Source: Pseudomonas sp. Tri1 (GTDB lineage Bacteria; Pseudomonadota; Gammaproteobacteria; Pseudomonadales; Pseudomonadaceae). Taken from it: a DNA stretch of 64,000 nt. The stretch spans positions 1,844,001 to 1,908,000 of the forward strand of contig NZ_CP072913.1 of NCBI RefSeq assembly GCF_017968885.1. The letters are read 5' to 3'. The position numbers were made by a program, and so were the translations under genes. Every line of letters starts with the position of its first letter. Positions within the stretch are counted from its first letter, which is position 1. Below the pieces are notes generated by a model, which did not search any database, was not told where the DNA came from, and saw only the letters and a program-made list of their open reading frames with translations. Shown in pieces: positions 34,901 to 64,000 of the stretch.

Positions 34901-35333
34901 TCTGATCTGCCGCCTTCGCGAGCACGCTTGCTCCCACATTGGTTCGTGTTGTGACCCGAATCTCAGGCATGCACAGTCTCCTGTGGGAGCGAGCTTGCTC
35001 GCGATGAGGCCCGCAAAGCCAGCAAATGAGCCTGAATCGGGGCGAAAATCTTCATTCGCAGCGTCTCTGAGCCCCTCTCGTCCTCTATCAGCCTGTCACC
35101 GGTCAACTAACTATGCTCCATGCGCATCAGGGGGATAGGTGCGTGGCGGCTCTTGTGATAACATCCGGCGGTTTCCAGGGCTGCCTCGCGAGGTAGCCTT
35201 TACTGCGCAGATCCATGGCATAACTCGTTGATTTGTCGTAAGTCGCTGCATGGCACTTGTTCTGCAGCGGCGAGCTTCGTTCGTCCCATCTGGATGTGAC
35301 GAGGTTTCACCAGAAAAAGGAATCAGGCTTCTC
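34889..35333. other. 445-bp intergenic region mtnA / gyrA
   Basis: It holds the REP copies above (34915-35005) and then ~330 bp of gyrA upstream DNA. TTGTGATAACATCC at 35153-35166 contains an extended -10-like TGTGATAAC, a candidate gyrA promoter element, but the -35 region is poor. The gyrA frame itself is open from 35250, but there is no binding site for those upstream starts. Confidence 0.5.
34915..35005. repeat. REPIN-like pair in outward orientation, GTGGGAGCGAGCTTGCTCGCGA class
   Basis: A copy in reverse orientation (CGCGAGCACGCTTGCTCCCA) comes first and a forward copy (TGTGGGAGCGAGCTTGCTCG) second, the opposite order to the other pairs. The region is between mtnA and gyrA. Confidence 0.85.
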
Positions 35334-44578: not shown

Positions 44579-46273
44579 ATGAGCGAAAGCTTTGCGGAAC
44601 TCTTTGAAGAAAGCCTGAAAACCCTGAACCTTCAGGCAGGCTCCATCATCACCGGTGTTATCGTTGATATCGATTACCAAGCTCGCTGGGTAACCGTTCA
44701 CGCTGGTCTGAAGTCTGAAGCACTCATCCCGCTTGAGCAGTTCTACAACGACGCTGGCGAACTGAACATCAACGTCGGTGACGAAGTTCACGTTGCGCTG
44801 GACTCGGTTGAAGATGGCTTTGGTGAAACCAAGCTGTCCCGTGAAAAAGCCAAGCGCGCTGAATGCTGGATCGTTCTGGAAGCGGCTTTCGCAGCTGAGG
44901 AAGTGGTCAAGGGCGTTATCAACGGTAAGGTTAAAGGCGGCTTCACTGTCGACGTTAACGGCATCCGTGCGTTCCTGCCAGGTTCCCTGGTTGACGTCCG
45001 TCCAGTGCGCGACACCACGCACCTGGAAGGCAAAGAGCTGGAATTCAAGGTCATCAAGCTGGACCAGAAGCGCAACAACGTTGTCGTTTCCCGTCGCAGT
45101 GTCCTGGAAGCCGAGAACTCCGCCGAGCGTGAAGCTCTGCTGGAATCGCTGCAGGAAGGCCAACAGGTCAAAGGTATCGTCAAGAACCTCACCGATTACG
45201 GCGCATTCGTCGATCTGGGTGGCGTCGATGGCCTGCTGCACATCACCGACATGGCCTGGAAGCGTATCAAGCATCCTTCGGAAATCGTCAACGTTGGCGA
45301 CGAGATCGATGTCAAGGTTCTGAAGTACGATCGCGAGCGCAATCGTGTTTCCCTGGGCCTCAAGCAACTGGGCGAAGATCCATGGGTTGCTATCAAAGCC
45401 CGTTACCCAGAAGGCACTCGCGTCACCGCTCGTGTTACCAACCTGACCGACTACGGCTGCTTCGCTGAGCTGGAAGAAGGCGTTGAAGGCCTGGTACACG
45501 TTTCCGAAATGGACTGGACCAACAAGAACATCCACCCTTCGAAAGTCGTACAAGTCGGCGACGAAGTGGAAGTCATGGTTCTGGACATCGACGAAGAGCG
45601 TCGTCGTATCTCCCTCGGCATCAAGCAGTGCAAGTCCAACCCATGGGAAGACTTCTCTGGCCAGTTCAACAAGGGCGATAAAATCTCCGGCACCATCAAG
45701 TCGATCACCGATTTCGGTATCTTCATTGGTCTGGACGGCGGCATCGACGGTCTGGTTCACCTGTCCGACATCTCCTGGAACGAAGTGGGCGAAGAAGCCG
45801 TACGCCGCTTCAAGAAGGGCGACGAGCTGGACACCGTTATCCTGTCGGTTGACCCAGAGCGCGAGCGCATTTCCCTGGGTATCAAGCAACTGGAAAGCGA
45901 TCCGTTCTCCGAGTACGTTCAAGAGAACGACAAAGGCGCAATCGTTAAGGGCATCGTGAAAGAAGTTGACGCTAAAGGCGCCATCATCACCCTGGCCGAC
46001 GATATCGAAGCGACTCTGAAAGCCTCCGAAATCAGCCGTGACCGCGTTGAAGACGCGCGTAACGTCCTGAAAGAAGGCGAAGAAGTAGAAGCCAAGATCA
46101 TCAGCGTTGACCGCAAGAGCCGCGTAATCCAGCTCTCCATCAAGTCGAAAGACGTTGAAGAAGAGAAAGAAGCAATCCAGAGCCTGCGCGACAAGCCAGC
46201 TTCGGACACTGCTGCTCCTGGTCCTACCACTCTGGGCGACCTGTTGCGTGCACAAATGGAAAAACAGAACTGA
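44579..46273 (+). CDS. rpsA: 30S ribosomal protein S1
   Basis: 564 residues with six S1 RNA-binding repeats. Repeats 3-6 show the pattern G..V.G.V..(I/L)TD(Y/F)G.F..(L/I).GGVDGLVH-like: [35 protein letters not shown] and [19 protein letters not shown]1 brings mRNA to the ribosome and is essential in gamma-proteobacteria. RBS AGGA precedes the ATG. Codon use is strongly biased (GTT, GCT, AAA mixed with C-ending codons), as for highly expressed ribosomal genes, and differs from the neighbours. Confidence 0.97.
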
Positions 46274-46923: not shown

Positions 46924-47220
46924 ATGACGAAGTCGGAGTTGATCGAACGAATTGTCACCCATCAAGGGCTACTCTCATCCAAGGATGTGGAGCTGGCTAT
47001 CAAGACCATGCTTGAGCAAATGTCCCAATGCCTGGCTACGGGAGATCGTATCGAGATCCGTGGTTTCGGCAGCTTCTCCCTCCACTACCGCGCCCCGCGA
47101 GTAGGTCGCAATCCAAAAACCGGCCAGTCCGTCAGCCTTGATGGGAAGTTCGTTCCTCATTTCAAGCCGGGCAAGGAGCTCAGGGATCGTGTGAATGAGG
47201 AGGAGGGTGATGAGTTTTAA
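46924..47220 (+). CDS. ihfB: integration host factor subunit beta
   Basis: 98 residues of the HU/IHF family: TKSELIERI start, [16 protein letters not shown] and the DNA-inserting arm RNPKTG. IhfB pairs with IhfA to bend DNA. It is the landmark on the left of the O-antigen locus in many Pseudomonas (rpsA-ihfB-wzz). AAGGGAAAA lies upstream of the ATG. Confidence 0.96.
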
Positions 47221-47472: not shown

Positions 47473-47652
47473 TGGATGTGTGAGCCCAGGAGTCTCGGTA
47501 AGGATCACTGTCTACAATTTTTTCTGACTTTGGGTGCGTTTTGTTCGTGTTTAATCTAACTCAGCTTTCCGCTGTATCCCTCGGGGTCTTGCCTTTTAAT
47601 GCGCTCTGTATTTTTGCAAGTGCAGTCTCAGAAGAAGAAGGCGAGGCTACCC

Positions 47653-48696
47653 ATGCAAAGTAATCGTGTTGACAGCCGTGGCGCGGATGAGATCGATTTG
47701 ATTGCGCTTGTGCGCGGGCTTTGGGCGCAAGTGTGGTTGATTCTTGGTGTCGCTATTTTGGTCACGGCTGGCGCGGCCACCTATGCGTTCCTCAGCAAGC
47801 CCGTTTATGAGGCCAAGCTTTTTATCATACCTCCGACGCAGAACGGTATTGCTGAGCTCAATTATGGTCGCGGGAAAGGCTCTGAGCTGGAGCTCTATTC
47901 CATCCAGCAAGTGTATGACGTATTTGTTCGAAACCTTCTGGGTGAATCCCTCCGTCAAAAATTCTTCAATGATGTCTATCTTCCCTCGCTTGATGAGTCT
48001 CAACGCAAGGGGGCGCTCGACGGTTTGTACGAGCGTTTCTCCCGAGAGTTGGTCATAAAAGGGGGGGGTAAGGACGCTTCGGATCGTTTTTCAATTACGG
48101 TTCAAGGCGGTGATCCTATTCGGGTGACGGAATGGGCAAAAGTTTATGTCCAGCGCGCCAGTGAAGCTGCCGAGTTAGAGCTGATCAAGAATGTCACGAC
48201 CGAAGCATCCGTCAGGGCAAGGAATCTGGAGCAGAGGATTATCAGCTTGCGCGAAACTTCGCAGCGGATACGCGAAGATCGGATTGAACAACTGCGTGAG
48301 GCGTTGGAGATTGCCGAGGCGATCGGCTTGACTACTCCGACAATAAATTCGTCTGCTGCGGTAGATATCACCGTAGATACGGGAAATAAAATGGATTATC
48401 AGCGCGGTAGTAAAGCGCTGGCGGCGGAAGTTAAAGCGCTGGAGACTAGGGCTTCCGATGATGCCTTTATATCGGATTTGCGCTCGCTTCAGATGCGATA
48501 CGGTTTCTATCGTAAGTTGAATGTCGACCCCGAGAGCATTTCGGTTTATCGGCAGGATGGTAGTATTAAGGTGCCGGAAAGCCCTATTAAACCGGTAAAA
48601 AGTATGATCTTGATGTTGGGGCTTATTGCGGGTCTTATGTTGGGGGTATTTATTGCCCTTGTGCGATTTGTTTTGAATCGTGACTCGGTTAAGTAG
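47653..48696 (+). CDS. wzz: Wzz-type O-antigen chain length determinant
   Basis: 347 residues from ATG 47653, which has GGCGAGG upstream; the frame is open from 47599. The first membrane helix spans ~27-47 and the second ~317-338, with a long helical periplasmic part between them (coiled-coil stretch ~175-235, ARNLEQRIISLRETSQRIRED). A Pro-rich segment precedes the second helix (PESPIKPVKSMILMLG), a hallmark of polysaccharide co-polymerases. It sets the length distribution of Wzy-made polymers. A run of eight G at 48061-48068 falls in codons 137-139. Confidence 0.92.
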   Translation: MQSNRVDSRGADEIDLIALVRGLWAQVWLILGVAILVTAGAATYAFLSKPVYEAKLFIIPPTQNGIAELNYGRGKGSELELYSIQQVYDVFVRNLLGESLRQKFFNDVYLPSLDESQRKGALDGLYERFSRELVIKGGGKDASDRFSITVQGGDPIRVTEWAKVYVQRASEAAELELIKNVTTEASVRARNLEQRIISLRETSQRIREDRIEQLREALEIAEAIGLTTPTINSSAAVDITVDTGNKMDYQRGSKALAAEVKALETRASDDAFISDLRSLQMRYGFYRKLNVDPESISVYRQDGSIKVPESPIKPVKSMILMLGLIAGLMLGVFIALVRFVLNRDSVK

Positions 48697-49208
48697 ATGA
48701 AGTCGTTTACTACCACTTGTATGTTTGCGGCCCGAGAAGAGGCAGTCGCTTGTTTGTGATTTGTAGACTTGTCATGGCTGAGTGATCTTTCAGTGAGTGA
48801 TAGATTTCAACGCTAGCGGCTTCTTTTGTTTTTTGAGCTCGTACGTCAGGTTGTCGGTATGTTGGTTTGTTTTAGGGGTGATGGCGTTATGACTCTAATT
48901 GCTGCAGTTGTGCGGTGAGCGGATTTAGGCGTCGGAAACCCTAATTAAGTGATGCCTATATGATTTGCTATTTTTGTGCCATCAGCGAATGAGCCTACCG
49001 ATCAAAAGCCTAACACAAGACGACTGGCCTAATGCAGCTTGGGTTGCCTGATAGATATTGCGTTTTCAGGGGGCACCGCACATCCTGAGGCGGTAGCGTG
49101 CCAAACTCAGCGAAGATGCGCCTTCAGCTTTGATGAGAGCATCAGAAAACCGCCTCGCCGTAGCGGCCAGCGCTGAATTTAAATACTCAACTAGTACTGA
49201 GGTGGAAA
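48697..49208. other. 512-bp leader between wzz and the legionaminic acid operon
   Basis: The region has no ORF with a credible start. It is visibly lower in GC than the upstream core genes. It contains the ops element at 49089 and an 8-bp inverted repeat that overlaps it. I found no clear sigma-70 promoter, though one must lie upstream of 49089 if ops is to work in the nascent transcript. Confidence 0.6.
49089..49101 (+). promoter_or_regulatory. ops element (RfaH recruitment site, JUMPstart core)
   Basis: GGCGGTAGCGTGC is an exact match to the ops sequence known from enterobacterial LPS and capsule operons, where it pauses RNA polymerase and recruits RfaH for antitermination of long operons. 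It lies on the coding strand 108 bp upstream of the first gene of the operon. RfaH homologues occur in Pseudomonas, but none is in this window. The match is seen; function is inferred. Confidence 0.8.
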
Positions 49209-50189
49209 GTGAAAAAAGTTTTGGTGACGGGTGCTGATGGCTTTATTGGTTCGCACTTGGTTGAGTTGTTGGTGCAAGAAGGCTATCAAGTAAAAGCTCT
49301 GTCCCAGTACAACTCGTTTAATAGTTGGGGGTGGCTGGAAGATGTCAATTGCCGAGAAGCGATTGAGGTGGTCAGTGGTGATGTCAGGGATCCACACTTC
49401 TGTAAATACCTCACGAAAGATGTCGATATTGTCTATCACCTGGCGGCGCTGATAGCTATTCCTTATTCCTACGTAGCCCCCGATAGCTATGTCGATACAA
49501 ATGTTAAGGGCACCTTGAACATTTGCCAGGCTGCTCTGGAAAATGGTGTGTCGCGTGTCATCCATACCTCAACCAGTGAGGTTTATGGTACGGCTCAATA
49601 TGTCCCTATCGACGAGAATCACCCCCTCCAAGCGCAGTCCCCTTACAGTGCGTCCAAAATTGGCGCTGATGCCATGGCGATGAGTTTCTTCAACGCGTTC
49701 AATTTGCCGCTGACCATCGCGCGACCGTTCAATACATACGGCCCCCGCCAGTCGGCACGCGCTGTGATCCCCACAATCATTACCCAGATTGCTAGTGGGA
49801 TGAAGCAGATCAAGCTGGGTGATGTGTCGCCAACTCGGGACTTCAACTATGTCTTGGACACCTGTCGTGGTTTCTTGGCATTGGCCAATTGCGACGAGGC
49901 TATTGGTCAGACGGTCAATATTGGTTCGAACTTTGAAATTTCAGTGGGCGACACGCTGAGCCTGATCAAGGAAATCATGGGCAGTGATGTTGAGTTCCTC
50001 GTCGACGATCAGCGCCTGCGCCCGGAAAAATCGGAAGTATTTCGTCTGTGGTGTGATAACACCAAAATTCAAGGGTTAACTGGTTTTAAACCTGACTACT
50101 CGATTCGTCAGGGCTTGGAGAAGACTATCGAATGGTTGGTTCGTCCTGAAAATCTGTCCAAGTACAAAGCCAATATTTACAATGTGTGA
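49209..50189 (+). CDS. legB: LegB-like NDP-sugar 4,6-dehydratase
   Basis: 326 residues, extended SDR family. The NAD loop TGADGFIGS is at the N-terminus and the Tyr/Lys pair is in YSASKIGAD. The active-site segment reads HTSTSEVYG, where RmlB-type enzymes have TDEVYG. LegB converts GDP-GlcNAc (or UDP-GlcNAc) to the 4-keto-6-deoxy sugar at the start of legionaminic acid synthesis. GTG 49209 has GAGG six bases upstream and gives MKKVLVTGADG. It is the first gene after the ops element. Assignment as LegB rather than another dehydratase rests on sequence type plus the downstream leg genes. Confidence 0.86.
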   Translation: MKKVLVTGADGFIGSHLVELLVQEGYQVKALSQYNSFNSWGWLEDVNCREAIEVVSGDVRDPHFCKYLTKDVDIVYHLAALIAIPYSYVAPDSYVDTNVKGTLNICQAALENGVSRVIHTSTSEVYGTAQYVPIDENHPLQAQSPYSASKIGADAMAMSFFNAFNLPLTIARPFNTYGPRQSARAVIPTIITQIASGMKQIKLGDVSPTRDFNYVLDTCRGFLALANCDEAIGQTVNIGSNFEISVGDTLSLIKEIMGSDVEFLVDDQRLRPEKSEVFRLWCDNTKIQGLTGFKPDYSIRQGLEKTIEWLVRPENLSKYKANIYNV

Positions 50190-54219: not shown

Positions 54220-54249
54220 TTCATTTAACATGATGAGTAAGGAATGACG

Positions 54250-55296
54250 ATGAGACCTTGGGAGTTGACCCTGACTGGGCCTCTGACGACGCTTGAAGAT
54301 GCCATAGCCATACTGGATCGTGTGGCTCTGCGTATAGTCTTGGTCATCGATGATCAGAATCGCTTGTTGGGTACGCTCACCGATGGTGACGTCCGCCGCG
54401 CCTTGTTAAAACGCCACACCCTCAGTGAGTCGGTGCAGGACGTCATGTGCAGCACGCCTCGGACGGCAAAGCGGGGTTGGAGCAAGGACCGTGTCTTGGC
54501 TGTGATGGAGAAGTATCAGCTTTTGCAGCTCCCGGTCCTTGACGATGCAGGTGTGGTAGTAGGTCTCGAGACACTGCATGACTTAGTCAATCCCCTGAAG
54601 CAGGATAATCCGGTGTTTCTCATGGCGGGTGGGTTTGGCACGCGATTACGCCCCTTGACTCATAATTGCCCGAAACCCCTGCTCAAAGTGGGTGATAAAC
54701 CCATTCTCGAGCTAATTCTGGAAAGTTTCATCAAGTCTGGTTTCCATAATTTTTATATCTCGACGCACTACATGCCTGAAATGATTGTTGCCCATTTCGG
54801 TGACGGTAGTCAGTGGGGGGTGACGATCCATTACATCCACGAGCATGAACCGCTTGGAACAGGTGGGGCTTTGGGGCTCCTTCCTCATGATGGGATCAAT
54901 CTTCCATTGATCGTGATGAATGGCGATTTGCTGACCACCCTAGATTTTCGAAGTCTTCTCGACTTCCATGGGGAAAAGGGAGGGGTTGCCACCATGTGTG
55001 TTCGTGAACATGAATATTGTGTTCCTTATGGCGTTGTTCAAAGTGACGGGCACAAGGTTCGCGCAATGGTGGAAAAGCCGGTGCAGAAGTTTTTCATCAA
55101 TGCCGGAATCTACGTGCTGGCACCGGAACTAGTAAAATGTGTGCCCTATGCCACGCGAATCGACATGCCGACGCTGCTGGAAAAACAAATTGCGCAAGGT
55201 AACGATGTCAGTATGTTCCCCTTGCACGAGTACTGGTTGGATATTGGTCGCATGGAAGATTTCCAGAAAGCCCAACAAGAGTTCGGGCACTTATGA
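54250..55296 (+). CDS. ptmE: PtmE-like CBS-nucleotidyltransferase
   Basis: 348 residues from ATG 54250, which has AAGGA seven bases upstream; ATG 54244 is too close to it. Two CBS domains (~5-115) are followed by a sugar-phosphate nucleotidyltransferase (~118-345) with MAGGFGTRLRPLT, CPKPLLKVGDKPI and MNGDLL. In Campylobacter PtmE is the guanylyltransferase that makes GDP-glucosamine for the GDP-linked legionaminic route. The CBS pair suggests control by an adenine nucleotide. It overlaps the next gene in an ATGA junction. Confidence 0.88.
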   Translation: MRPWELTLTGPLTTLEDAIAILDRVALRIVLVIDDQNRLLGTLTDGDVRRALLKRHTLSESVQDVMCSTPRTAKRGWSKDRVLAVMEKYQLLQLPVLDDAGVVVGLETLHDLVNPLKQDNPVFLMAGGFGTRLRPLTHNCPKPLLKVGDKPILELILESFIKSGFHNFYISTHYMPEMIVAHFGDGSQWGVTIHYIHEHEPLGTGGALGLLPHDGINLPLIVMNGDLLTTLDFRSLLDFHGEKGGVATMCVREHEYCVPYGVVQSDGHKVRAMVEKPVQKFFINAGIYVLAPELVKCVPYATRIDMPTLLEKQIAQGNDVSMFPLHEYWLDIGRMEDFQKAQQEFGHL

Positions 55297-56300
55297 ACGC
55301 CTCAGGCTGTTGCCTTGTCGTCGGCAGTGGGAGCATTGCCAAGCGTCACCTGCGTAACCTGCGACAGGTGCTACCGGAGTGTTCGATACACTGCGTTTCG
55401 GCGTCCGGGCGGCCCTTGAGGCCTGATGAGGTGACGGCTGATGTCGTCCATTCAAGTTTGGATGAAGCCATTGCCTCCAATCCGCTCTGCGCAATCGTAG
55501 CTTCACCGGCTCCCTGGCACTTATCCCACGCGACTCAGCTGATGGCGGCTGGTATTCCCGTGCTGATCGAAAAGCCCATGGTTGCAACGGTGCAGGACGC
55601 GATAAAGATAGCCGAACAGGCTGAGCGGCATAATGCATGTGTCGACATCGGCTACAATTTACGATTCCTGCCTTCAGCATGTTGCGTAAGAGATCTGATC
55701 CGGCAAGGTGGCTTAGGCCGTATCCACTCCGTTCATACGGATGTCGGTCAGTATTTGCCGGATTGGCGGCCAATGACAAACTTCAGACATAACGTTTCCG
55801 CCCAGAAGTCGCTGGGGGGAGGGGTATTGCTGGAGTTGAGTCACGAGCTCGACTATCTCTGTTGGTTGTTTGGGCCTGTGGACTCGGTTTATTGCAAGGT
55901 CAGGAATACCGGAGAGCTCGAGATCGATGTTGAAGACTGTGTGGACGCTTTGTTTACCTTTTCCGCCGATATCGTGGCTACGTTGCACATGGATTTTTTA
56001 CAGCGTGCGCCTATGCGAACCTGCAAAATCATTGGGGCGAAGGGCACCCTTGTCTGGGATCTGAATCGCAATGATGTCGACTTGCATGGGCCAGGTGGCG
56101 CTGTTCAAAGGCTTTATGAGGATTGCGATTACGATCGCAATGAGATGTACGTCGCCGAGCTCCGGCACTTTGTCAATGTGTTCAAGCATGGCGTTGCGGC
56201 CAATGTGAACTTGCAAGAGGCAACACAGACCTTGCGGGTGATTGAGGCGATGCGCCAGTCCTCTGCTCTGGGGCTGCCTGTGAATATGAAGAAGGTCTAG
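55293..56300 (+). CDS. Gfo/Idh/MocA oxidoreductase, PtmF-like by position
   Basis: 335 residues. The Rossmann loop VVGSGSIAKRHLRNL, the family motif EKPM with the conserved Lys, and GGGVLLELSHELDYLCWL with the catalytic His region are present. The order ptmE - this gene - legF - ptmA-like SDR matches the Campylobacter ptm region as I recall it (Cj1329-Cj1332), which makes it a PtmF candidate. Its exact reaction is not established to my knowledge. It is coupled to ptmE by a 4-bp overlap. Confidence 0.8.
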   Translation: MNASGCCLVVGSGSIAKRHLRNLRQVLPECSIHCVSASGRPLRPDEVTADVVHSSLDEAIASNPLCAIVASPAPWHLSHATQLMAAGIPVLIEKPMVATVQDAIKIAEQAERHNACVDIGYNLRFLPSACCVRDLIRQGGLGRIHSVHTDVGQYLPDWRPMTNFRHNVSAQKSLGGGVLLELSHELDYLCWLFGPVDSVYCKVRNTGELEIDVEDCVDALFTFSADIVATLHMDFLQRAPMRTCKIIGAKGTLVWDLNRNDVDLHGPGGAVQRLYEDCDYDRNEMYVAELRHFVNVFKHGVAANVNLQEATQTLRVIEAMRQSSALGLPVNMKKV

Positions 56301-56301
56301 C

Positions 56302-56988
56302 ATGCGAATTGCAGCATTCATTTTTGCCCGTGGAAACTCCAAGGGCCTGCCCGGCAAGAATATCCGCCCGCTGGGCGGGGTTCCGTTAATTGGCCATAGC
56401 ATCAAACTGGCAGCTAGTATGCCAGCCATAGATCGTGTGTTCGTTTCGACAGACTCGGACGAAATAGCCGATATAGCCCGACAATATGGCGCAGAAGTGA
56501 TCGTGCGCCCCGGGCACTTGGCGACCGACACGGCTGCTGAGTGGAACGCCTGGCAGCATGCCGTCACTTATTTAGCCGAGCGCAATTATTGCTTTGACGT
56601 ATTCGTTAGTTTGCCGGCCACCAGCCCTTTGCGATCCAAAGAGGACGTTCAAGGCTGTCTGGATTTATTGACCGAGGATGTTGATGCCGTTATCACAGTC
56701 ACAGCGGCTTCCCGCAGTCCTTTTTTTAATATGGTTGTGATTGACGAGGCGGGTCATTGCAGTGTGGTCAATTCGGGTGACAGAGTCACTCGGCGTCAGG
56801 ATGCCCCCCTTGTGTACGACATCACGACAGTCGCTTATGTGACTACACCGGACTTTATCTTAGGTCATGATCGTTTGTTTGCCGGTCGGGTGAAGTCGTG
56901 GATAGTGCCGAAGCATCGGGCCGTCGATATTGATGATCTCTATGACTTCAAAGTGGCCGAAGCCTTCTATTCAATGCGGAATGAGTAA
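56302..56988 (+). CDS. legF: CMP-nonulosonic acid (legionaminic acid) cytidylyltransferase
   Basis: 228 residues. The CMP-sugar synthetase N-terminus FARGNSKGLPGKNIRPLGG, FVSTDSDEIADIA and SLPATSPLRSKEDVQ are intact. It activates the nine-carbon acid with CTP, giving the CMP-linked donor. It starts 1 bp after the upstream stop. Whether the substrate is legionaminic acid or a derivative cannot be read from the sequence; the leg genes around it decide the call. Confidence 0.92.
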   Translation: MRIAAFIFARGNSKGLPGKNIRPLGGVPLIGHSIKLAASMPAIDRVFVSTDSDEIADIARQYGAEVIVRPGHLATDTAAEWNAWQHAVTYLAERNYCFDVFVSLPATSPLRSKEDVQGCLDLLTEDVDAVITVTAASRSPFFNMVVIDEAGHCSVVNSGDRVTRRQDAPLVYDITTVAYVTTPDFILGHDRLFAGRVKSWIVPKHRAVDIDDLYDFKVAEAFYSMRNE

Positions 56989-56989
56989 C

Positions 56990-57733
56990 ATGTTTATAGG
57001 CAAGAAATTTTTGGTTGCGGGCGCAGCTGGTTTACTTGGGAGGCAGCTAGTAAGGCACTTGGTGGAAAACCAGGCTCAGGTGGTGGCCGTAGATATTGAT
57101 CTCGAGGGACTGCAAAGCCTCTATGCGACGGACGCCGCCGTAACAGTCGAATCGCTTAATTTAAATGATGAACAGGCGGTTATTCGATTTTTTTCTGATC
57201 GGTCTGATCTCGACGGAGCGGTGAACTGTTCCTATCCGCGGAATAGTAAGTACGGCGCGCATTTCTACGACGTGGAGCTTGCAAGTTTCAATGAGAATGT
57301 GTCATTGCACTTGGGAGCCTCGTTTCTCTTCATGCAGCAAGCGGCCGCTTATTTTGAGCGTGTAAAAACACCTTTTTCGCTTGTGAACATCGCATCCATC
57401 TACGGTGTGGTGGCCCCGCGTTTTGATGTATACGAGGGGCTCAAGATGACGATGCCTGTCGAATATGCGGCTATCAAGTCTGCATTGATTCATCTGAGCA
57501 AGTACGTTGTCCGTTACGTTGGCCAAAGCGATTTTCGTTGCAATGTTGTAAGTCCTGGTGGGTTGTTCGACCACCAGCCCGAACCTTTCCTGGAGCGCTA
57601 TCAACAACATAGCCTGGGTAAAGGGATGCTTGACGTTAAAGATGTCCTTGGATCGATCGCTTTTCTGTTAAGCGATCAATCTCAGTATGTGAACGGTCAA
57701 AATCTAGTGGTGGATGACGGGTTTTCATTATGA
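56990..57733 (+). CDS. ptmA: PtmA-like SDR oxidoreductase
   Basis: 247 residues from ATG 56990, or 250 from ATG 56981, which would overlap legF by 8 bp. The cofactor loop is AGAAGLLGRQL, the catalytic Ser is in NIASIYG and the Tyr/Lys pair is in EYAAIKSALIHLS. The C-terminus (QYVNGQNLVVDDGFSL) is typical of sugar-locus SDRs. Position directly after legF is where ptmA sits in Campylobacter. The reaction is unproven. It ends in an ATGA overlap with the next gene. Confidence 0.8.
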   Translation: MFIGKKFLVAGAAGLLGRQLVRHLVENQAQVVAVDIDLEGLQSLYATDAAVTVESLNLNDEQAVIRFFSDRSDLDGAVNCSYPRNSKYGAHFYDVELASFNENVSLHLGASFLFMQQAAAYFERVKTPFSLVNIASIYGVVAPRFDVYEGLKMTMPVEYAAIKSALIHLSKYVVRYVGQSDFRCNVVSPGGLFDHQPEPFLERYQQHSLGKGMLDVKDVLGSIAFLLSDQSQYVNGQNLVVDDGFSL

Positions 57734-58734
57734 GCCAAGCCAATCAAGTAAAATCGAACTATCTCTTGGTCGGCGCCGGACAATTGGGGACACGGCACCT
57801 TCAGGCGTTGGTCGGGCATGCTCCCGGGCCTACCGCTATCCAGGTTGTCGATCCTTTCGAAACTTCACTGACGATGGCACGTGAACGTGCCGACGCTGTG
57901 AAAAATAGCGACGGATATGTCGAACTGTCCTATTTGAGCAAGTTTGACCATATCTTGCCAACTATCGATTTTTCAGTCATTGCAACTAATGCTAACTGTC
58001 GGCTCGACGTCATAAAACAGGTGTTGGCAAAGTCTCATGTCAGGTATCTCTTGCTTGAGAAAGTTTTGTTCCAGTCGACCGATCAGCTTGATCAGGCAGT
58101 TGATTTGATCGAGCGAGTTGGCACCGCCACCTATGTCAACTGCCCGCGCCGTATGTTTCCAATCTATCGGGAGCTGCGCGAGCACCTTAAAGATGCCAAA
58201 CGGGTCGTACTCACAGTTGAAGGTGATGATTGGGGACTGGCTTGTAATGCCATCCATTTCATCGACCTGTGGGCTTTTCTGACCGGATGCGCAGACTATG
58301 AAGTGGATGTCTCTGCGTTAGATTCCACGATTCTCGATAGTAAGCGCGAGGGCTATAAAGAAGTCACAGGCATCCTGAGCGGACACGCTGCAGGGCACTC
58401 CTTCTGTTTAACTTCGCGTGCATTGGATACGGTGGATAAAGAGCCTCTGAAGGTGCGGATTGAAACCGAACGGCTGGTAATCGATATTCTCGAGTCTAAG
58501 GGGATCTGTCGAATCGTAGATTTGGCAAGCCACTCTGAACAGGAGCAAAGTTTTTCGATTCCCTACCAGAGTCAACTCACTCATCTCGTGGCTGATTCAC
58601 TATTACAGCATGGGCACTGTGAACTGACTCCATTTAAGGAGTCGGTCGCGTTACACAAGCCATTGCTCAAGGCTTTACTGACGTTTTTCAATGAGTACGA
58701 CGATGTCGTGCGCGATCACTGTCCGATAACTTGA
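57730..58734 (+). CDS. divergent Gfo/Idh/MocA-like oxidoreductase
   Basis: 334 residues. The N-terminal Rossmann loop is LLVGAGQLGTRHLQAL and DPFETSL carries the acidic residue after beta-2. The usual EKP motif reads EKVLF, so the Lys is kept but the Pro is lost. The region where the catalytic His is expected reads ACNAIHFIDLWAFLTG. No standard legionaminic acid step needs this enzyme. It may build a modified nonulosonate or a second sugar of the repeat unit. It is translationally coupled to the SDR gene. Confidence 0.7.
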   Translation: MSQANQVKSNYLLVGAGQLGTRHLQALVGHAPGPTAIQVVDPFETSLTMARERADAVKNSDGYVELSYLSKFDHILPTIDFSVIATNANCRLDVIKQVLAKSHVRYLLLEKVLFQSTDQLDQAVDLIERVGTATYVNCPRRMFPIYRELREHLKDAKRVVLTVEGDDWGLACNAIHFIDLWAFLTGCADYEVDVSALDSTILDSKREGYKEVTGILSGHAAGHSFCLTSRALDTVDKEPLKVRIETERLVIDILESKGICRIVDLASHSEQEQSFSIPYQSQLTHLVADSLLQHGHCELTPFKESVALHKPLLKALLTFFNEYDDVVRDHCPIT

Positions 58735-58747
58735 TACCAAGGTTCCC

Positions 58748-59689
58748 ATGATTCTTCTTGTTGGCGCCGGCCCGATGGCCGTGCATTATGCGCATGTACT
58801 TAAAGGTTTGAAGAAAGAATTCAGTGTGGTAGGACGAAGTCTTGATTCCGCGTCGCGCTTCGAAAATGCCACGGGTGTGTCGCCCATCACGGGTGGCTTG
58901 GAGCTATTTCTGAATGAGTGTGCTGAAGTCATTGAGTACGCCATTGTTGCGGTGAGTGTCGAGCAACTGGAGGCCACCACCCGGCAGTTATTGCTCCATG
59001 GTGTTTCTCGTATTCTGGTTGAAAAACCAGGTGGTTTAACCCTTACTTCTATTCAATCGTTGCAGGACCTGGCCACTGAGCGTAATGCCGACATTTTTAT
59101 TGCCTATAATCGGCGTTTTCTGTCATCAGTACTGCTTGCCAAGGCGATGATTGCTGCGGATGGAGGAGTGACCAGTTTCACTTTCGAGCTGACCGAGTGG
59201 TCCGATAGCATTGCTAAGATAGCCAAGGCTGAAGGCGTTAAAGAAAATTGGTTCTTCGCAAATACCAGTCACGTTACTGACTTGGCTTTTTATTTGGGGG
59301 GGCAGCCGGAGCTCATATCCTGCTATGCCGCAGGAGAATTGGAATGGCATACGCGTGCTTCGAGGTTTGCGGGTGCCGGTAAAACGAGCCAAGGGGCGCT
59401 ATTTTCTTATTCCGGGGATTGGAATGCGCCGGGTCGTTGGGCAGTGGAGATCATGACGTCAGCACGACGGTATATTTTAAAGCCCATGGAGCAATTGCAA
59501 ATCCAAAATCGCAACAGTGTTGCCGTAGAACACTGCGAAGTAGATGCCATACTCGATCAGCAATATAAGCCAGGGCTGTTTCTGCAAGTTAAGCACTTTT
59601 TGGATAACGATATCAGCGTATTGTGCTCGCTGCGTGAGCATTTGGCTAACAGTGTTATTTATGCGCGAATCGCCAGTTATGATCGCTAG
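58748..59689 (+). CDS. Gfo/Idh/MocA family oxidoreductase
   Basis: 313 residues. LLVGAGPMAVHYAHVL is the nucleotide-binding loop, VEKPGG the family motif and NTSHVTDLAFYLGG the likely catalytic His region. It is shorter than the usual ~340 residues. It follows the divergent oxidoreductase by 13 bp, and the two may act in consecutive steps. The substrate is unknown. A G7 run occurs at 59296-59302. Its last 11 bp overlap the flippase gene. Confidence 0.75.
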   Translation: MILLVGAGPMAVHYAHVLKGLKKEFSVVGRSLDSASRFENATGVSPITGGLELFLNECAEVIEYAIVAVSVEQLEATTRQLLLHGVSRILVEKPGGLTLTSIQSLQDLATERNADIFIAYNRRFLSSVLLAKAMIAADGGVTSFTFELTEWSDSIAKIAKAEGVKENWFFANTSHVTDLAFYLGGQPELISCYAAGELEWHTRASRFAGAGKTSQGALFSYSGDWNAPGRWAVEIMTSARRYILKPMEQLQIQNRNSVAVEHCEVDAILDQQYKPGLFLQVKHFLDNDISVLCSLREHLANSVIYARIASYDR

Positions 59690-60944
59690 ATTGAAACGCT
59701 GGGGTAACGTTAGCGCGGTTAACGTTCCTGAATTAAAAAGTGCACTGCGGTATGTGTTTTTTGTCTATAGCGAGTTCGCGCTAGGGGCGCTGCTTACTTT
59801 ATATTTCATTAATACAGCATCGGCCAGTATTTTGGCAGAATCGAGCATCACCTTCATTGTGATCTCCTACAGTGTTTTCCTGGCATTCGGCTTTCACAAT
59901 GGTGTCACCCGAGATGGTGCAATTGCCGCGACGCTGGAGCAGCGTAATGAAATATTGAGGTTAGAACTTCTATTCTCTTCTGGTGTAGCTTTGGCCCTCT
60001 TGGGAGCGGTACTGGTCTTCAATCCCAATTTCTATTTAATGGCAGGCATGATGATCGGTGCAGTCAATCATTTGAAAGCAGCCTGTCAGGCCGTATTTAG
60101 ACTGAATGGTGAGAATAATCGACTCAATCTGCTTAATGTCTCGTGTGCTGCGCTGTTTTTTCTATTATTTGCGCTGAGTCAAGGGTTCGCCTGGCCCATA
60201 CCCCTCGAGCGGGCATTCTTTCTGACGTGGCTCACCGCCACCACCTTAGTGGTGGCGGTATTCTATGTGGTGTGTGGAAAAAACGTCGGTCTATTTAGTC
60301 GCCGCCCCTATGACCGAAACCTGTTTTTCAAGATTCTGAGTGCTTCTAAGTTTATGTTCGTGATGGCTGTCGGTGGTGTCGTGCTGTTGACGTCCGATCG
60401 AGTGATACTGAATCTCCATCAGGCTGAAGAGACAGTTATCGCTAATTTTCAGTACATTGATACTCTATCGAATATTTACTTTCTCGGCTTGTCAGCGGTG
60501 CTGTACTACTTTACGCCTAATTTGTTACGGCGATACACCTCCGCAGGGGCCGTTTCCGCTGCCCATTTTCTACACTCGATGAAGTTGATTCTTTTCGTTC
60601 TAAGTGGGGTCTTCTTACTGTTCCTGGTTTGTGCGTCAGTATTTATATTCGTGCTGGGCCGATTCGAGTGGATGATGTTTGAATTGTTGTTTTCGATGCT
60701 GCTAATGAAGACGGCTATGATCATGCTCGGCACTTTGTGTAGTTTTTATTTGGCGAACAACGGTGAGAAGCGTTTGGCGGGATATTATATTGTTATCACC
60801 AGTATCTCCTTGTTGGCAACGTATTTGTGGGTCGGTTTTTTTTCCACCACGCAAGCGATTGTCTTTCTGCCTCTTTCAAACGGCGCATTGATCGTTGTGA
60901 TGTTTAGCATTCTGCTCATACGCATCAAGGCAATAAAAACATGA
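59679..60944 (+). CDS. wzx: Wzx-type polysaccharide flippase (candidate)
   Basis: 421 residues with about twelve hydrophobic segments spread along the whole length, e.g. YVFFVYSEFALGALLTLYF, ALALLGAVLVF and FMFVMAVGGVVLLTSDRVILN. The topology is that of Wzx/MATE-like flippases, which turn lipid-linked repeat units to the periplasmic face. No sequence motif proves it; the call rests on topology and on its position before a polymerase. ATG 59679 is chosen; ATG 59661 is also in frame and both overlap the upstream gene. T8 at 60836-60843. Confidence 0.75.
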   Translation: MIARLKRWGNVSAVNVPELKSALRYVFFVYSEFALGALLTLYFINTASASILAESSITFIVISYSVFLAFGFHNGVTRDGAIAATLEQRNEILRLELLFSSGVALALLGAVLVFNPNFYLMAGMMIGAVNHLKAACQAVFRLNGENNRLNLLNVSCAALFFLLFALSQGFAWPIPLERAFFLTWLTATTLVVAVFYVVCGKNVGLFSRRPYDRNLFFKILSASKFMFVMAVGGVVLLTSDRVILNLHQAEETVIANFQYIDTLSNIYFLGLSAVLYYFTPNLLRRYTSAGAVSAAHFLHSMKLILFVLSGVFLLFLVCASVFIFVLGRFEWMMFELLFSMLLMKTAMIMLGTLCSFYLANNGEKRLAGYYIVITSISLLATYLWVGFFSTTQAIVFLPLSNGALIVVMFSILLIRIKAIKT

Positions 60945-61621
60945 AGACAGTTTTGATGTTGACCGATTCTCTTGGTCTTCCCCGAGTCCAGCCCGAGTGT
61001 GTTTCAGATGATGAGTGTTGGGTTTATCGCCTTCAAGACACCTTTAGTCATGTGTTCAAGTTTCGTGCGATTTGTACGCCGGGCATGGATACTCGGCAGT
61101 TGTTAGTGGCGAGTCGGAACTACCATCAGGCAATCAAGCCGGATCTGGTGATTCTTCAAGTAGGTATTGTAGATTGTTATCCGCGAGCGCTAAGGCGTAG
61201 CGAACTATCTATTATCATGCGTTTGCCAAGGATGTTGAATACACTCTTGCATCAGCAAGTTAAGCGTCATTATGGTTATTTGATAAAGCGTCGGCGTATT
61301 CAATATGTTGGTGCTGCCGAGTTTAAAGAGAATTTACAGTCGGTGCGCGACCTGTTTCCGGGGGCACAGTTTCGCATTGTGCCCATCGCTCCCCCTTGCT
61401 CTGATTATAAAGCCAAGAATCCATTGATTGAGTCTGCTGTGACTAGTTATAACGGGATTCTGACCGACTTGTTTGGTGCTGAAGTGTTGGGTAGCTGTTA
61501 CGCAGAGGGAGGGGATCGATTGTTCATGAATGATCATCACCATTTGAATGCGACAGGGCATACCCAAGTCTATAATAGCGTGAGCCAGGCATTGTGTGAG
61601 TTTTTGGACGGAAGCGGCTGA
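60941..61621 (+). CDS. SGNH/GDSL hydrolase-like protein
   Basis: 226 residues, no signal peptide, ATGA overlap with the flippase gene. SGNH blocks can be traced: Ser in MLTDSLGLPR (block I), QVGIVDCYPR in the block III position where GxND is usual, and DHHHLNATGH (block V Asp and His). The block III Asn appears replaced by Asp. Proteins of this kind in polysaccharide loci may be O-acetyl esterases or acyltransferases acting on the repeat unit in the cytoplasm. The catalytic state is uncertain. Confidence 0.72.
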   Translation: MKTVLMLTDSLGLPRVQPECVSDDECWVYRLQDTFSHVFKFRAICTPGMDTRQLLVASRNYHQAIKPDLVILQVGIVDCYPRALRRSELSIIMRLPRMLNTLLHQQVKRHYGYLIKRRRIQYVGAAEFKENLQSVRDLFPGAQFRIVPIAPPCSDYKAKNPLIESAVTSYNGILTDLFGAEVLGSCYAEGGDRLFMNDHHHLNATGHTQVYNSVSQALCEFLDGSG

Positions 61622-61633
61622 CGGAGCAAGCAA

Positions 61634-62887
61634 ATGGTATTGTTTACTGCATTTTTAATGGTCTTCGTTTATCTAGCGTTTCGGAATAAGAGTGCGCTCG
61701 GCCCCTCCAACATTGTTTTCCTGAATTATGCGCTGTATTTTGTATTTCCTGCGGTCCTGTTTTATTTTTTGGAAGCTGTGCACTGGGAGTATGTCTTGCC
61801 GTGGGGCAAGACAAATGATTGGTCTACACTTTCCGAAGAATCGGTACTGTCGTATTTGTACGTGTTCATGATGTTTTTTATATTTTCGCGCCTGCTCGAA
61901 ATCGGAATGTGTCGTACTGTGGATGCAGCTTTTTTCGAACGCTATGCAGTAAGGCCGGTACCTTTCTTTTTTTTCATATCCCTCATTCTTCTTGGAGGGG
62001 TAATTTTCATGCAGGTGACGGGTGGGATAGATCAGTGGTTGGGTAGTTATAGTGATACATATATAAAGAACAAGAAGGGGTATGGGTTACTCAATTTTAT
62101 GTTGATTATGGGGTCAAACTTTTTGGCTTTCGTACTCGGATTTTATTGGCGAGTTGAGACGCGTGTCAACTGGGTTTTGTTTTTGTATGCGCTTACGGTT
62201 TTGGTGCTCTGTGCATATCTACAGGGTATTAAGAGCAGGATGTTCTATTATGCAATTCTTTTTAGTGCTCCCTGGCTTGTTTATGCCCGGATTTCAATTT
62301 CAAAAGGGGTCGGTGTATTTATAGCATTCATGCTTGCTTTCATGTTTTCAATGTACTTTCGATCCAATGGTTTTTATAGTACTCCAGAGATGTTGTTAGA
62401 GTATTTTTTAAGTTATTTTAATACTATATTTTTGCATGATCGCATTGTTCATGATATGGATCCCCAGTTCTTCCTGACTATTGATTTTCCAATAAATAAA
62501 TGGTTGACATTTGTGGGGGTTCCGAGTGAGGAATACCTTCATGATATCAGTCGTTGGCTGACATCCATTTATTTTCCTGCGCAATGGTTTGAGGGGAGTG
62601 CTACACAGCAATGGCCAATTGAAACGGAACTTTACCTTAATTACGGATATTTTGTTTTTTGGTGGGTTCCAGTGTTTCTGTATTCGTTGTTTATGTGTGT
62701 TCTCTACTCTGTGCGCTTCAAGTATGGGCCGGTCTTTTTGTTTATATATGTACTGGGCTACTTGCATTTCTTGAGTGTGTTTCGTGGGAGCATGTTTGCT
62801 TGGATTGATCTGTTTTCTTTGTTGGTATATGGTTTTCTGCTTATGTTTGGGCGTGTCCTGTTTGTTAAAGTTGAGTCATCATCATGA
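61634..62887 (+). CDS. wzy: Wzy-type O-antigen polymerase (candidate)
   Basis: 417 residues with about ten to twelve membrane helices and a larger polar loop around residues 255-330 (PQFFLTIDFPINKWLTF to WFEGSATQQWPIE), the usual place of the Wzy periplasmic loop. YLQGIKSRMFYYA in the middle resembles the G.KS conserved stretch of oligosaccharide repeat-unit polymerases. Such genes are poorly conserved, so position and topology carry the call. Strongly AT-rich codon use (TTT, ATT, TAT). T8 at 61977-61984. It overlaps the next gene in ATGA. Confidence 0.78.
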   Translation: MVLFTAFLMVFVYLAFRNKSALGPSNIVFLNYALYFVFPAVLFYFLEAVHWEYVLPWGKTNDWSTLSEESVLSYLYVFMMFFIFSRLLEIGMCRTVDAAFFERYAVRPVPFFFFISLILLGGVIFMQVTGGIDQWLGSYSDTYIKNKKGYGLLNFMLIMGSNFLAFVLGFYWRVETRVNWVLFLYALTVLVLCAYLQGIKSRMFYYAILFSAPWLVYARISISKGVGVFIAFMLAFMFSMYFRSNGFYSTPEMLLEYFLSYFNTIFLHDRIVHDMDPQFFLTIDFPINKWLTFVGVPSEEYLHDISRWLTSIYFPAQWFEGSATQQWPIETELYLNYGYFVFWWVPVFLYSLFMCVLYSVRFKYGPVFLFIYVLGYLHFLSVFRGSMFAWIDLFSLLVYGFLLMFGRVLFVKVESSS

Positions 62888-64000
62888 CTGAGGTGAAGTT
62901 GATAAAAATTGCGCAGGTGGTTTTCAGCGCCTACTTGAATGAGGTACGGTTAGATATCGCGTTGCGAGACAAATTCCTTGCTCGTGAGCCCTCCGCCAGC
63001 TTTCTTCCTCGCTATAAGATGATGGCGATTTTGCCATTCTATAAAAAACATCCTGGGTTGGTCGTCTTGGGGCTGTGGGCGGCGAGTGTAACATTGTTGC
63101 CAGTTTTGTTCGTCGGGTCAATTTTGCTGGTTTTAATGGGCATGCTCTATGCTTGCTGCAGGCGCCTACCGCGATATGCTGATCTTGACGAGGAAATTTG
63201 CTTTCCTGTTAGTAATGACTTCAAGTTATATCACTATCTTTTTTCTGATTTTGATCGGCGTCAAAAATTTTTGTGTAGGAAAGCTTTCGCTTTAGTAGAG
63301 TATTTCTCTGTGTCTGATTTTGTTCGGGCGTTCTTCGTCATCCAATGCGTGCTATGGTATTGTTTGACAAAGTCATATAATAAGAACGTTCGTTTTCGAG
63401 ATGTGTCGCTTCATTTGCGTGACCTGATTTCCATCAGTTGCTTCGCGGTATTTGTCGCACAACTCGATGCTCATGGAAAGCGTCCGATCACTGATAGCAA
63501 TCTGCAGCGTTGGGATTTCATTATTAGCCACTTGGCGCCTCGTGCTTCACTTATCCAGCACGCGTTTATCCACGCAGATATCGATTTTGAGGCTCCCTTT
63601 GGTCGGTTGGGTAAACTTTACGTATTTGATCCATTATTCGTCGAGGTTTTCGCTCGATATTTTACAATTGATCAGGTAGGCAAGGTCGCACCAAAGATCA
63701 GAATGAGCGCGTGCTCATCATCCAAGCCGACTCTGTTTTTGGCATCCTCGGAGCCTTATCTGGACATCGAGATTGAATTTCTTCGTTTTGTGAGAGCGGA
63801 GCTGGATTACCATGTTCTTGTGAAATTGCACCCGAAGCATATTTACGGAGATGCGGTCAATATTTTGCTTGGGATGGCGGATGAAGTGGTAGATCGCTCA
63901 GACTTTCCCGACAGTGACTATATGGCGTCTTATGACTCGTTTTTGGGGTATGAATATAAGTCGTTGGGTAAACGAGTGCTGTTCCTTAAAGAAGGGTGGT
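62884..64000 (+). CDS. unfinished ORF, candidate nonulosonate glycosyltransferase (3' truncated by window)
   Basis: The frame is open from ATG 62884 to the end of the window, 372 codons. The N-terminal ~110 residues include a hydrophobic hairpin (LVVLGLWAASVTLLPVLFVGSILLVLMG), suggesting membrane attachment. The C-terminal half looks like a GT-B fold: KPTLFLASSE near the second Rossmann domain, then VLVKLHPKH and DYMASYDSFLGYEYKSLGKRVLF. An HP motif followed by a Ser-containing nucleotide-binding segment is the pattern of CMP-sialic acid and CMP-Kdo transferases such as polysialyltransferases. It is thus a candidate for transferring the CMP-legionaminic acid made upstream, but the C-terminus is missing. 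Confidence 0.6.
   Translation, partial: MTEVKLIKIAQVVFSAYLNEVRLDIALRDKFLAREPSASFLPRYKMMAILPFYKKHPGLVVLGLWAASVTLLPVLFVGSILLVLMGMLYACCRRLPRYADLDEEICFPVSNDFKLYHYLFSDFDRRQKFLCRKAFALVEYFSVSDFVRAFFVIQCVLWYCLTKSYNKNVRFRDVSLHLRDLISISCFAVFVAQLDAHGKRPITDSNLQRWDFIISHLAPRASLIQHAFIHADIDFEAPFGRLGKLYVFDPLFVEVFARYFTIDQVGKVAPKIRMSACSSSKPTLFLASSEPYLDIEIEFLRFVRAELDYHVLVKLHPKHIYGDAVNILLGMADEVVDRSDFPDSDYMASYDSFLGYEYKSLGKRVLFLKEGW

What the first reader, a model, noticed from the sequence alone, without database searches (positions are those of the whole stretch)
49089..49101. Exact ops/JUMPstart core ahead of a Pseudomonas nonulosonic acid operon
GGCGGTAGCGTGC matches the RfaH recruitment sequence of enteric LPS and capsule operons base for base, on the coding strand 108 bp before legB. 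The downstream operon is at least 14.8 kb, AT-rich and overlapping, which is the kind of transcript that needs processive antitermination. It suggests that surface glycan expression here depends on an RfaH-type factor.
Basis: partly seen in the sequence, partly recalled or inferred. Interest (0 to 1): 0.75.

Follow-up and report, generated by a model that had tools for sequence, protein, structure and literature searches.

The report
Orphaned RfaH landing site in Pseudomonas
A DNA signal that normally recruits the transcription helper RfaH to sugar-coat genes is still perfect in this Pseudomonas, although the RfaH gene that relatives carry right beside it is gone, so it looks like a switch left behind after its operator was lost.

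Summary
In detail: GGCGGTAGCGTGC lies at 49089-49101, and the ops 12-mer occurs once in the 6.7 Mb genome. The bare 12-mer is common by chance in the genus. Its position and the hairpin directly upstream are not: leader 49053-49106 matches a Pseudomonas JUMPstart model built without it (40.8 bits, genome-wide E 1.2e-9).

In at least 11 of 20 RfaH+ loci examined, rfaH sits between wzz and this leader at the same rpsA-ihfB locus, including G268 and G160, the nearest of 16 loci compared. Of 69 sampled genomes with the leader, 64 have an rfaH-type gene; 5 have none, a pseudogene or a truncated gene, and 4 of those 5 have an altered ops. Here ops is intact, the flanks are worn, and a faint rfaH 3'-end relic may remain (48941-49015; p about 0.02).

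Best reading: an orphaned, probably vestigial, Pseudomonas-type JUMPstart/ops element after in-place rfaH loss. RfaH-independent retention, for example as a pause site, is not excluded.

The parts
44579..46273 (+). rpsA, left anchor of the locus
   Evidence: ORF; 97.7-99.0% nucleotide identity to rpsA at this locus in G268, G160, G290, G125, G035, G210 (partial in G268 and G160)
46924..47220 (+). ihfB, left anchor of the locus
   Evidence: 98-residue ORF; identity of its relatives at the locus; the name is recalled
47599..48696 (+). wzz-type chain length regulator, intact, 365 residues
   Evidence: best NCBIfam match WzzB 76.3 bits, below its cut-off of 267
48697..49052 (+). interval between wzz and the leader, where relatives carry rfaH; no rfaH here
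   Evidence: no RfaH by tblastn or profile beyond a -1.9 bit hint; rfaH at this place in relatives
48941..49015 (+). possible relic of the last 25 codons of rfaH (one stop inside), suggestive only
   Evidence: p 0.018 by 4000 shuffles; 98 of 3448 tiles as good, 10 of 1150 with the offset fixed; looked at after a weak profile hint
49053..49106 (+). Pseudomonas-type JUMPstart leader
   Evidence: model R1, 40.8 bits, E 1.9e-11, 1.2e-9 genome-wide
49067..49071 (+). left arm (CAGGG) of the hairpin before ops
   Evidence: aligned to the model stem
49083..49087 (+). right arm (TCCTG) of the hairpin before ops
   Evidence: aligned to the model stem
49089..49100 (+). ops 12-mer GGCGGTAGCGTG on the coding (non-template) strand; 49101 is the further C
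49200..49205 (+). Shine-Dalgarno-like AGGTGG before legB
   Evidence: read from the sequence; same letters in G210 and G290
49209..50189 (+). legB, first gene of the nonulosonic acid operon
   Evidence: TIGR04180, 525.5 bits
50186..54219 (+). legC-type aminotransferase, neuC, neuB and neuD-type acetyltransferase genes
   Evidence: each over its NCBIfam cut-off
54244..56988 (+). nucleotidyltransferase with CBS part, oxidoreductase, and cytidylyltransferase-like genes
   Evidence: NCBIfam matches below their cut-offs
56930..63999 (+). rest of the one-strand gene string, open at the window end
   Evidence: ORFs

Best explanation
The site is a true ops element inside a Pseudomonas form of the JUMPstart leader. 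Ancestrally the locus read rpsA-ihfB-wzz-rfaH-JUMPstart/ops-glycan operon: RNA polymerase paused at ops, RfaH made by the gene just upstream read the exposed hairpin of the non-template strand, and stayed on to carry transcription through the long AT-rich operon. In this lineage rfaH was lost in place, leaving an orphaned ops that has not yet decayed. At present the leader can at most pause polymerase; NusG, not RfaH, accompanies transcription of legB and the genes behind it. Shown: the element, no RfaH found in the genome, the order with rfaH at this locus in relatives, and broken rfaH and ops at the same locus in other species. Inferred: the RfaH mechanism in Pseudomonas (taken from E. coli), that loss happened in place, and that this copy is vestigial.
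For: Window held out of the model yet matched at E 1.9e-11. Only NusG found in a one-contig, 100% complete genome by PF02357, TIGR01955 and an 18-sequence Pseudomonas RfaH profile. In 298 genomes 48 of 54 with the leader have RfaH over the cut-off against 54 of 244 without it, Fisher 2.4e-20. rpsA-ihfB-wzz-rfaH-ops order in at least 11 of 20 RfaH+ loci examined, among them G268 and G160, the nearest of the 16 loci compared by rpsA, ihfB and wzz. Decay at the locus: rfaH pseudogene with a stop and a frame change and a 2-mismatch ops in G125; truncated rfaH in G035; a 3'-end rfaH relic (0 of 4000 shuffles and 0 of 3448 tiles as good) and a 3-mismatch ops in G210. The ops core C3-G8 is intact in 73 of 74 copies from RfaH+ genomes and in 2 of 5 from RfaH-defective ones, Fisher 5.0e-4.
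Against: ops is intact 12 of 12 here while the flanks kept 9 of 14 conserved positions (RfaH+ copies 12-14, partly an alignment effect in the loop); pure neglect would more often have hit ops too. The rfaH relic in the window is weak (p 0.018-0.028). Only five RfaH-defective copies are in the sample, and the G035 change also occurs in RfaH+ genomes. One RfaH+ genome, G288, has a second leader with a broken ops core, so a broken ops is not confined to RfaH-less genomes. In G268 and G160 a 669-residue gene lies between wzz and rfaH, so the order was not everywhere direct. No expression data.
Confidence: 0.72

Rival explanations
1. The ops is kept by selection without RfaH: as a strong pause that lets the ribosome or NusG couple, or as a landing site for an unknown factor.
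For: 12 of 12 ops bases intact while flanking conserved positions are worn. ops is described as the strongest pause in E. coli, with flanking bases for pausing and a central part for the regulator (PMC6391919, passages).
Against: In 4 of 5 RfaH-defective copies ops has changed, 3 of them in the core; G290 with the same operon has no recognisable site.
Confidence: 0.13
2. rfaH was lost only in this isolate or very recently, and other strains of the species still have it and use the site.
For: Intact ops; G268 and G160, the nearest of 16 loci compared, have rfaH and ops.
Against: No recognisable rfaH body remains in the 356 bp interval, and the possible relic is heavily diverged, which speaks for an older loss. 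Other strains of the species were not available.
Confidence: 0.08
3. The leader came in with the legB operon by horizontal transfer from an RfaH+ donor, so no rfaH was ever lost beside it here.
For: The operon is AT-rich against its surroundings, and glycan loci are often exchanged (general knowledge).
Against: Relatives have rfaH and this leader at the same rpsA-ihfB-wzz place; G210 with the same operon has an rfaH 3'-end relic just before the leader.
Confidence: 0.06
4. The 13-mer is a chance match.
For: The 12-mer occurs in 257 of 298 genomes.
Against: The hairpin and leader match at genome-wide E 1.2e-9 at the one locus where relatives have the element.
Confidence: 0.01

Closest known systems
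ops element of enteric RfaH-dependent operons
   Same: 12 of 12 bases, coding strand, untranslated leader of a long surface-glycan operon
   Different: no RfaH found in this genome; the upstream hairpin has a different stem (the enteric stem is recalled)
JUMPstart RNA, Rfam RF01707
   Same: hairpin directly followed by ops
   Different: 12.5 bits against a gathering score of 35; 0 of 6 Pseudomonas loci searched reach gathering
rfaH genes beside glycan loci in Pseudomonadaceae
   Same: an RfaH-domain protein proposed as activator of the EPS273 locus in P. stutzeri 273 (PMC5532660, passages) and rfaH next to surface-glycan clusters in Azotobacter (PMC4465626, passages)
   Different: in PMC5532660 neither ops nor JUMPstart is mentioned, in PMC4465626 JUMPstart is not (ops not searched there); here the site is present and the gene is not
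RfaH loss in Pseudomonadaceae (PMC7593976, sections 9 and 11 read)
   Same: about 60% of the family lack RfaH and loss is called ongoing
   Different: those two sections do not follow the ops sites left behind

Membership tests
RfaH-dependent ops operon | exact or near-exact ops on the coding strand of the leader | tested here: met
   12 of 12 at 49089-49100
RfaH-dependent ops operon | long surface-glycan operon downstream on the same strand | tested here: met
   49209 to the window end, 14.8 kb, legB first
RfaH-dependent ops operon | RfaH encoded in the genome | tested here: not met
   only NusG by three searches
RfaH-dependent ops operon | expression falls when ops or rfaH is removed | not testable with these tools
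   no expression data
JUMPstart, Rfam RF01707 | score at or above the gathering threshold | tested here: not met
   12.5 bits against 35; none at gathering in the window
   40.8 bits, E 1.9e-11
   98.9% of cells paired against at most 68.5% when slid, but 65 of 500 shuffles reach the covariation score

The most novel reading that the evidence does not exclude
The ops has been kept by selection after rfaH was lost, so a Pseudomonas ops works without RfaH, as a programmed pause that couples translation or recruits NusG or another factor to a nonulosonic acid operon.
Probability: 0.13. Interest if true: 0.75.

Novelty: new variant of a known kind. Interest (0 to 1): 0.5.

Why it matters
Wang et al. 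state that E. [quoted passage not shown] A conserved leader beside rfaH in Pseudomonas, with the ops core nearly invariant where RfaH is present and often broken where it is gone, is comparative evidence that Pseudomonas RfaH uses the same ops hairpin. The repeated loss of rfaH at one locus gives a natural series (gene and site intact; gene broken; gene gone and site intact; site decayed; site gone) in which to ask what becomes of a long operon, and of a pause site, when its antiterminator disappears.

Tried and rejected
Rfam with relaxed thresholds gave nothing at the site in a 3.8 kb search and a sub-threshold JUMPstart match in a 321-base search. Weak model hits in RfaH-less G191, G073 and G004 (24-26 bits) were read in context and judged chance: none of the locus genes tested matches within the 18 kb fetched and the sequence looks protein-coding by eye. 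G191 and G073 were dropped from the 71 genomes, leaving 69. A DNA search with the whole leader found 8 of 298 genomes, the window's own included, so a covariance model was used. A plasmid search found legB relatives, not the leader. RNAalifold on 18 leaders did not return the upstream stem, three rows being shifted; the stem was then given by hand on 15 rows. Its covariation is weak (65 of 500 shuffles), so the hairpin rests on conservation and likeness to the enteric leader.

Literature searches: in the rows listed (at most 20 each) I saw no title or abstract start on ops or JUMPstart leaders in Pseudomonas; the library holds open-licence papers only. Seen as passages: PMC7593976 (also two sections), PMC13015549, PMC6391919, PMC5532660, PMC4465626, PMC7819879, PMC2375017.

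Counting caveats. The 15 model seeds were chosen by exact ops; without them 50 of 59 RfaH+ copies have a perfect ops and 58 of 59 an intact core (Fisher against the 5 defective copies 0.005 and 9e-4). With them it is 65 of 74 and 73 of 74 (0.002 and 5e-4). My first count missed the second leader of G288; adding it worsened the figures to these. One duplicate row (L260) was dropped. G060 counts as RfaH+ although its gene shows one TGA. The sequence searched for a window relic was looked at after a profile hint. For the 11 of 20 synteny count only about 6-8 kb upstream was fetched, and in 5 of the 11 the wzz match is only 24-27% identical.

Full report
Observation. The 13-mer GGCGGTAGCGTGC is at 49089-49101 on the + strand, 107 bases before the GTG of legB at 49209. 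It is the only exact copy in the window, and the 12-mer is unique in the 6.7 Mb genome. The bare 12-mer should not impress: 257 of 298 genomes of the genus hold it somewhere.

The element. Exact ops copies near rfaH in other genomes share an upstream motif, roughly GTTYTCAGGA, a loop, then ATCCTGG directly followed by ops. This is the layout of the enteric JUMPstart (hairpin, then ops; the enteric stem is recalled) with a different stem. A covariance model from 15 such leaders, window left out, finds the window at 40.8 bits, E 1.9e-11, and 1.2e-9 genome-wide. The stem is supported by conservation and by better pairing than slid versions (98.9% against at most 68.5% of cells), hardly by covariation (65 of 500 shuffles). 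The Rfam JUMPstart model does not reach it: 0 of 6 Pseudomonas loci at gathering, window 12.5 bits against 35.

No RfaH here. PF02357, TIGR01955 and a profile of 18 Pseudomonas RfaH proteins find only the 177-residue NusG in this one-contig, 100% complete genome. TIGR01955 is over its cut-off in 102 of 298 genomes, so the search works in this genus. Published work says about 60% of Pseudomonadaceae lack RfaH and that loss is ongoing (PMC7593976, section read).

Leader and RfaH go together. In 298 genomes, 54 have the leader at E 1e-4 or better. Of these 48 have RfaH over the cut-off, against 54 of the 244 others (Fisher 2.4e-20). The remaining six are G000, G035, G060, G125, G159 and G210. Enlarging to 398 genomes gives 71 at E 5e-4, or 69 after dropping G073 and G191, whose weak hits look like chance in coding sequence. 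Of the 15 new ones 13 have RfaH over the cut-off, G313 a divergent gene, G320 none. In all: 61 over the cut-off; 3 with a gene below it (G060, with one TGA, G159, G313); 5 without a sound rfaH (G000, G210 and G320 none, G125 a pseudogene, G035 a truncated gene).

Order at the locus. In at least 11 of 20 RfaH+ loci examined, rfaH and ops follow rpsA and/or ihfB and a wzz-type gene, the window's own place; in 5 of the 11 the wzz match is weak, 24-27% identity. Of 16 loci compared with the window, G268 and G160 are nearest by rpsA (98.8-99.0%, partial), ihfB (about 95%) and wzz (78-79%), and both have rfaH and intact ops there, behind a 669-residue gene.

Decay series at that locus. G125: wzz, rfaH with a stop and a frame change, ops with 2 mismatches. 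G035: wzz, rfaH cut short (match ends after about 117 residues), ops with 1 mismatch that also occurs in RfaH+ genomes. G210, with the same legB operon (legB protein 86% identical): no rfaH, but a 25-codon match to RfaH C-termini close to the expected place (74 nt from ops; 0 of 4000 shuffles, 0 of 3448 tiles as good) and a 3-mismatch ops. G290, same operon, no rfaH, no recognisable site. G320: no rfaH, 3-mismatch ops 4.6 kb after ihfB. Window: no rfaH, intact ops, and a weaker 25-codon match at 48941-49015, one stop inside, whose distance to ops (88 nt) lies in the range of 11 intact genes (86-124 nt): p 0.018 by shuffling, 98 of 3448 tiles as good, 10 of 1150 with the offset held to 74-124 nt. 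I treat the window relic as suggestive only.

The ops core. E. coli RfaH reads a hairpin with pairs C3:G8 and G4:A7 and a flipped T6 (PMC6391919, passages). Positions 3-8 are intact in 73 of 74 copies from RfaH+ genomes; the exception is a second leader in G288, whose first copy is intact. They are intact in 2 of 5 RfaH-defective copies (Fisher 5.0e-4; 9.4e-4 without the 15 seeds). A perfect ops is found in 65 of 74 against 1 of 5 (Fisher 0.002; 0.005 without seeds). Both groups come from the same model search, which favours ops-like sites, and copies from related genomes are not independent.

Mechanism. The inferred ancestral working is that of E. coli: pause at ops, hairpin read by RfaH, RfaH carried through the operon. 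In this genome the second step has no actor. The site is most likely an orphan that has not decayed, by luck or because loss was recent. Worn flanks (9 of 14 conserved non-ops positions kept, RfaH+ copies 12-14, partly an alignment effect in the loop) with a perfect ops leave room for an RfaH-independent role. legB has its own Shine-Dalgarno-like AGGTGG; no sigma-70-like promoter or intrinsic terminator was seen in 48600-49300.

Verdict. Observation confirmed; present-day RfaH dependence not supported; descent of the site from an RfaH-served leader well supported. A new variant of a known kind.

Noticed in passing
G290 (L257:2552-3605) and G210 (L068:4862-5202): wzz beside the same legB operon appears broken: three separate pieces in G290 and a partial match in G210, whereas it is intact in the window.
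   Followed up: no
G050, G235, G184, G182, G020, G068, G155, G066, G295, G152, G085, G126: A second group of Pseudomonas RfaH (189-208 bits) has a weak leader match (E 0.003-0.09) about 8-9 kb upstream of rfaH on the same strand, as if rfaH closed a cluster there.
   Followed up: partly
G288:C18:228899-228954: Second leader copy in an RfaH+ genome with three ops mismatches, one in the core, 2 kb from an intact copy.
   Followed up: partly
G156 (L256:6673-7080) and G313 (L255:6856-7296): Divergent or shortened RfaH-like genes; in G156 after rpsA, ihfB and wzz, without a strong leader match.
   Followed up: partly
G048, G059, G261, G283: Leaders closest to the window just after ops (GTGCCAAA) lie about 3 kb from an rfaH on the opposite strand, with a 742-residue open frame between in the locus read, G261 (L061).
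   Followed up: partly
L153, L160 (Halomonas), L168 (Alcanivorax), L158 (Marinospirillum): The same hairpin-plus-ops pattern occurs outside Pseudomonas.
   Followed up: no
window 35236-35322: gyrA leader RNA (RF01740), 76 bits.
   Followed up: no
window 61634-62887: 417-residue protein in the glycan gene string with no NCBIfam match; from its hydrophobic look possibly a polymerase (recalled, untested).
   Followed up: no
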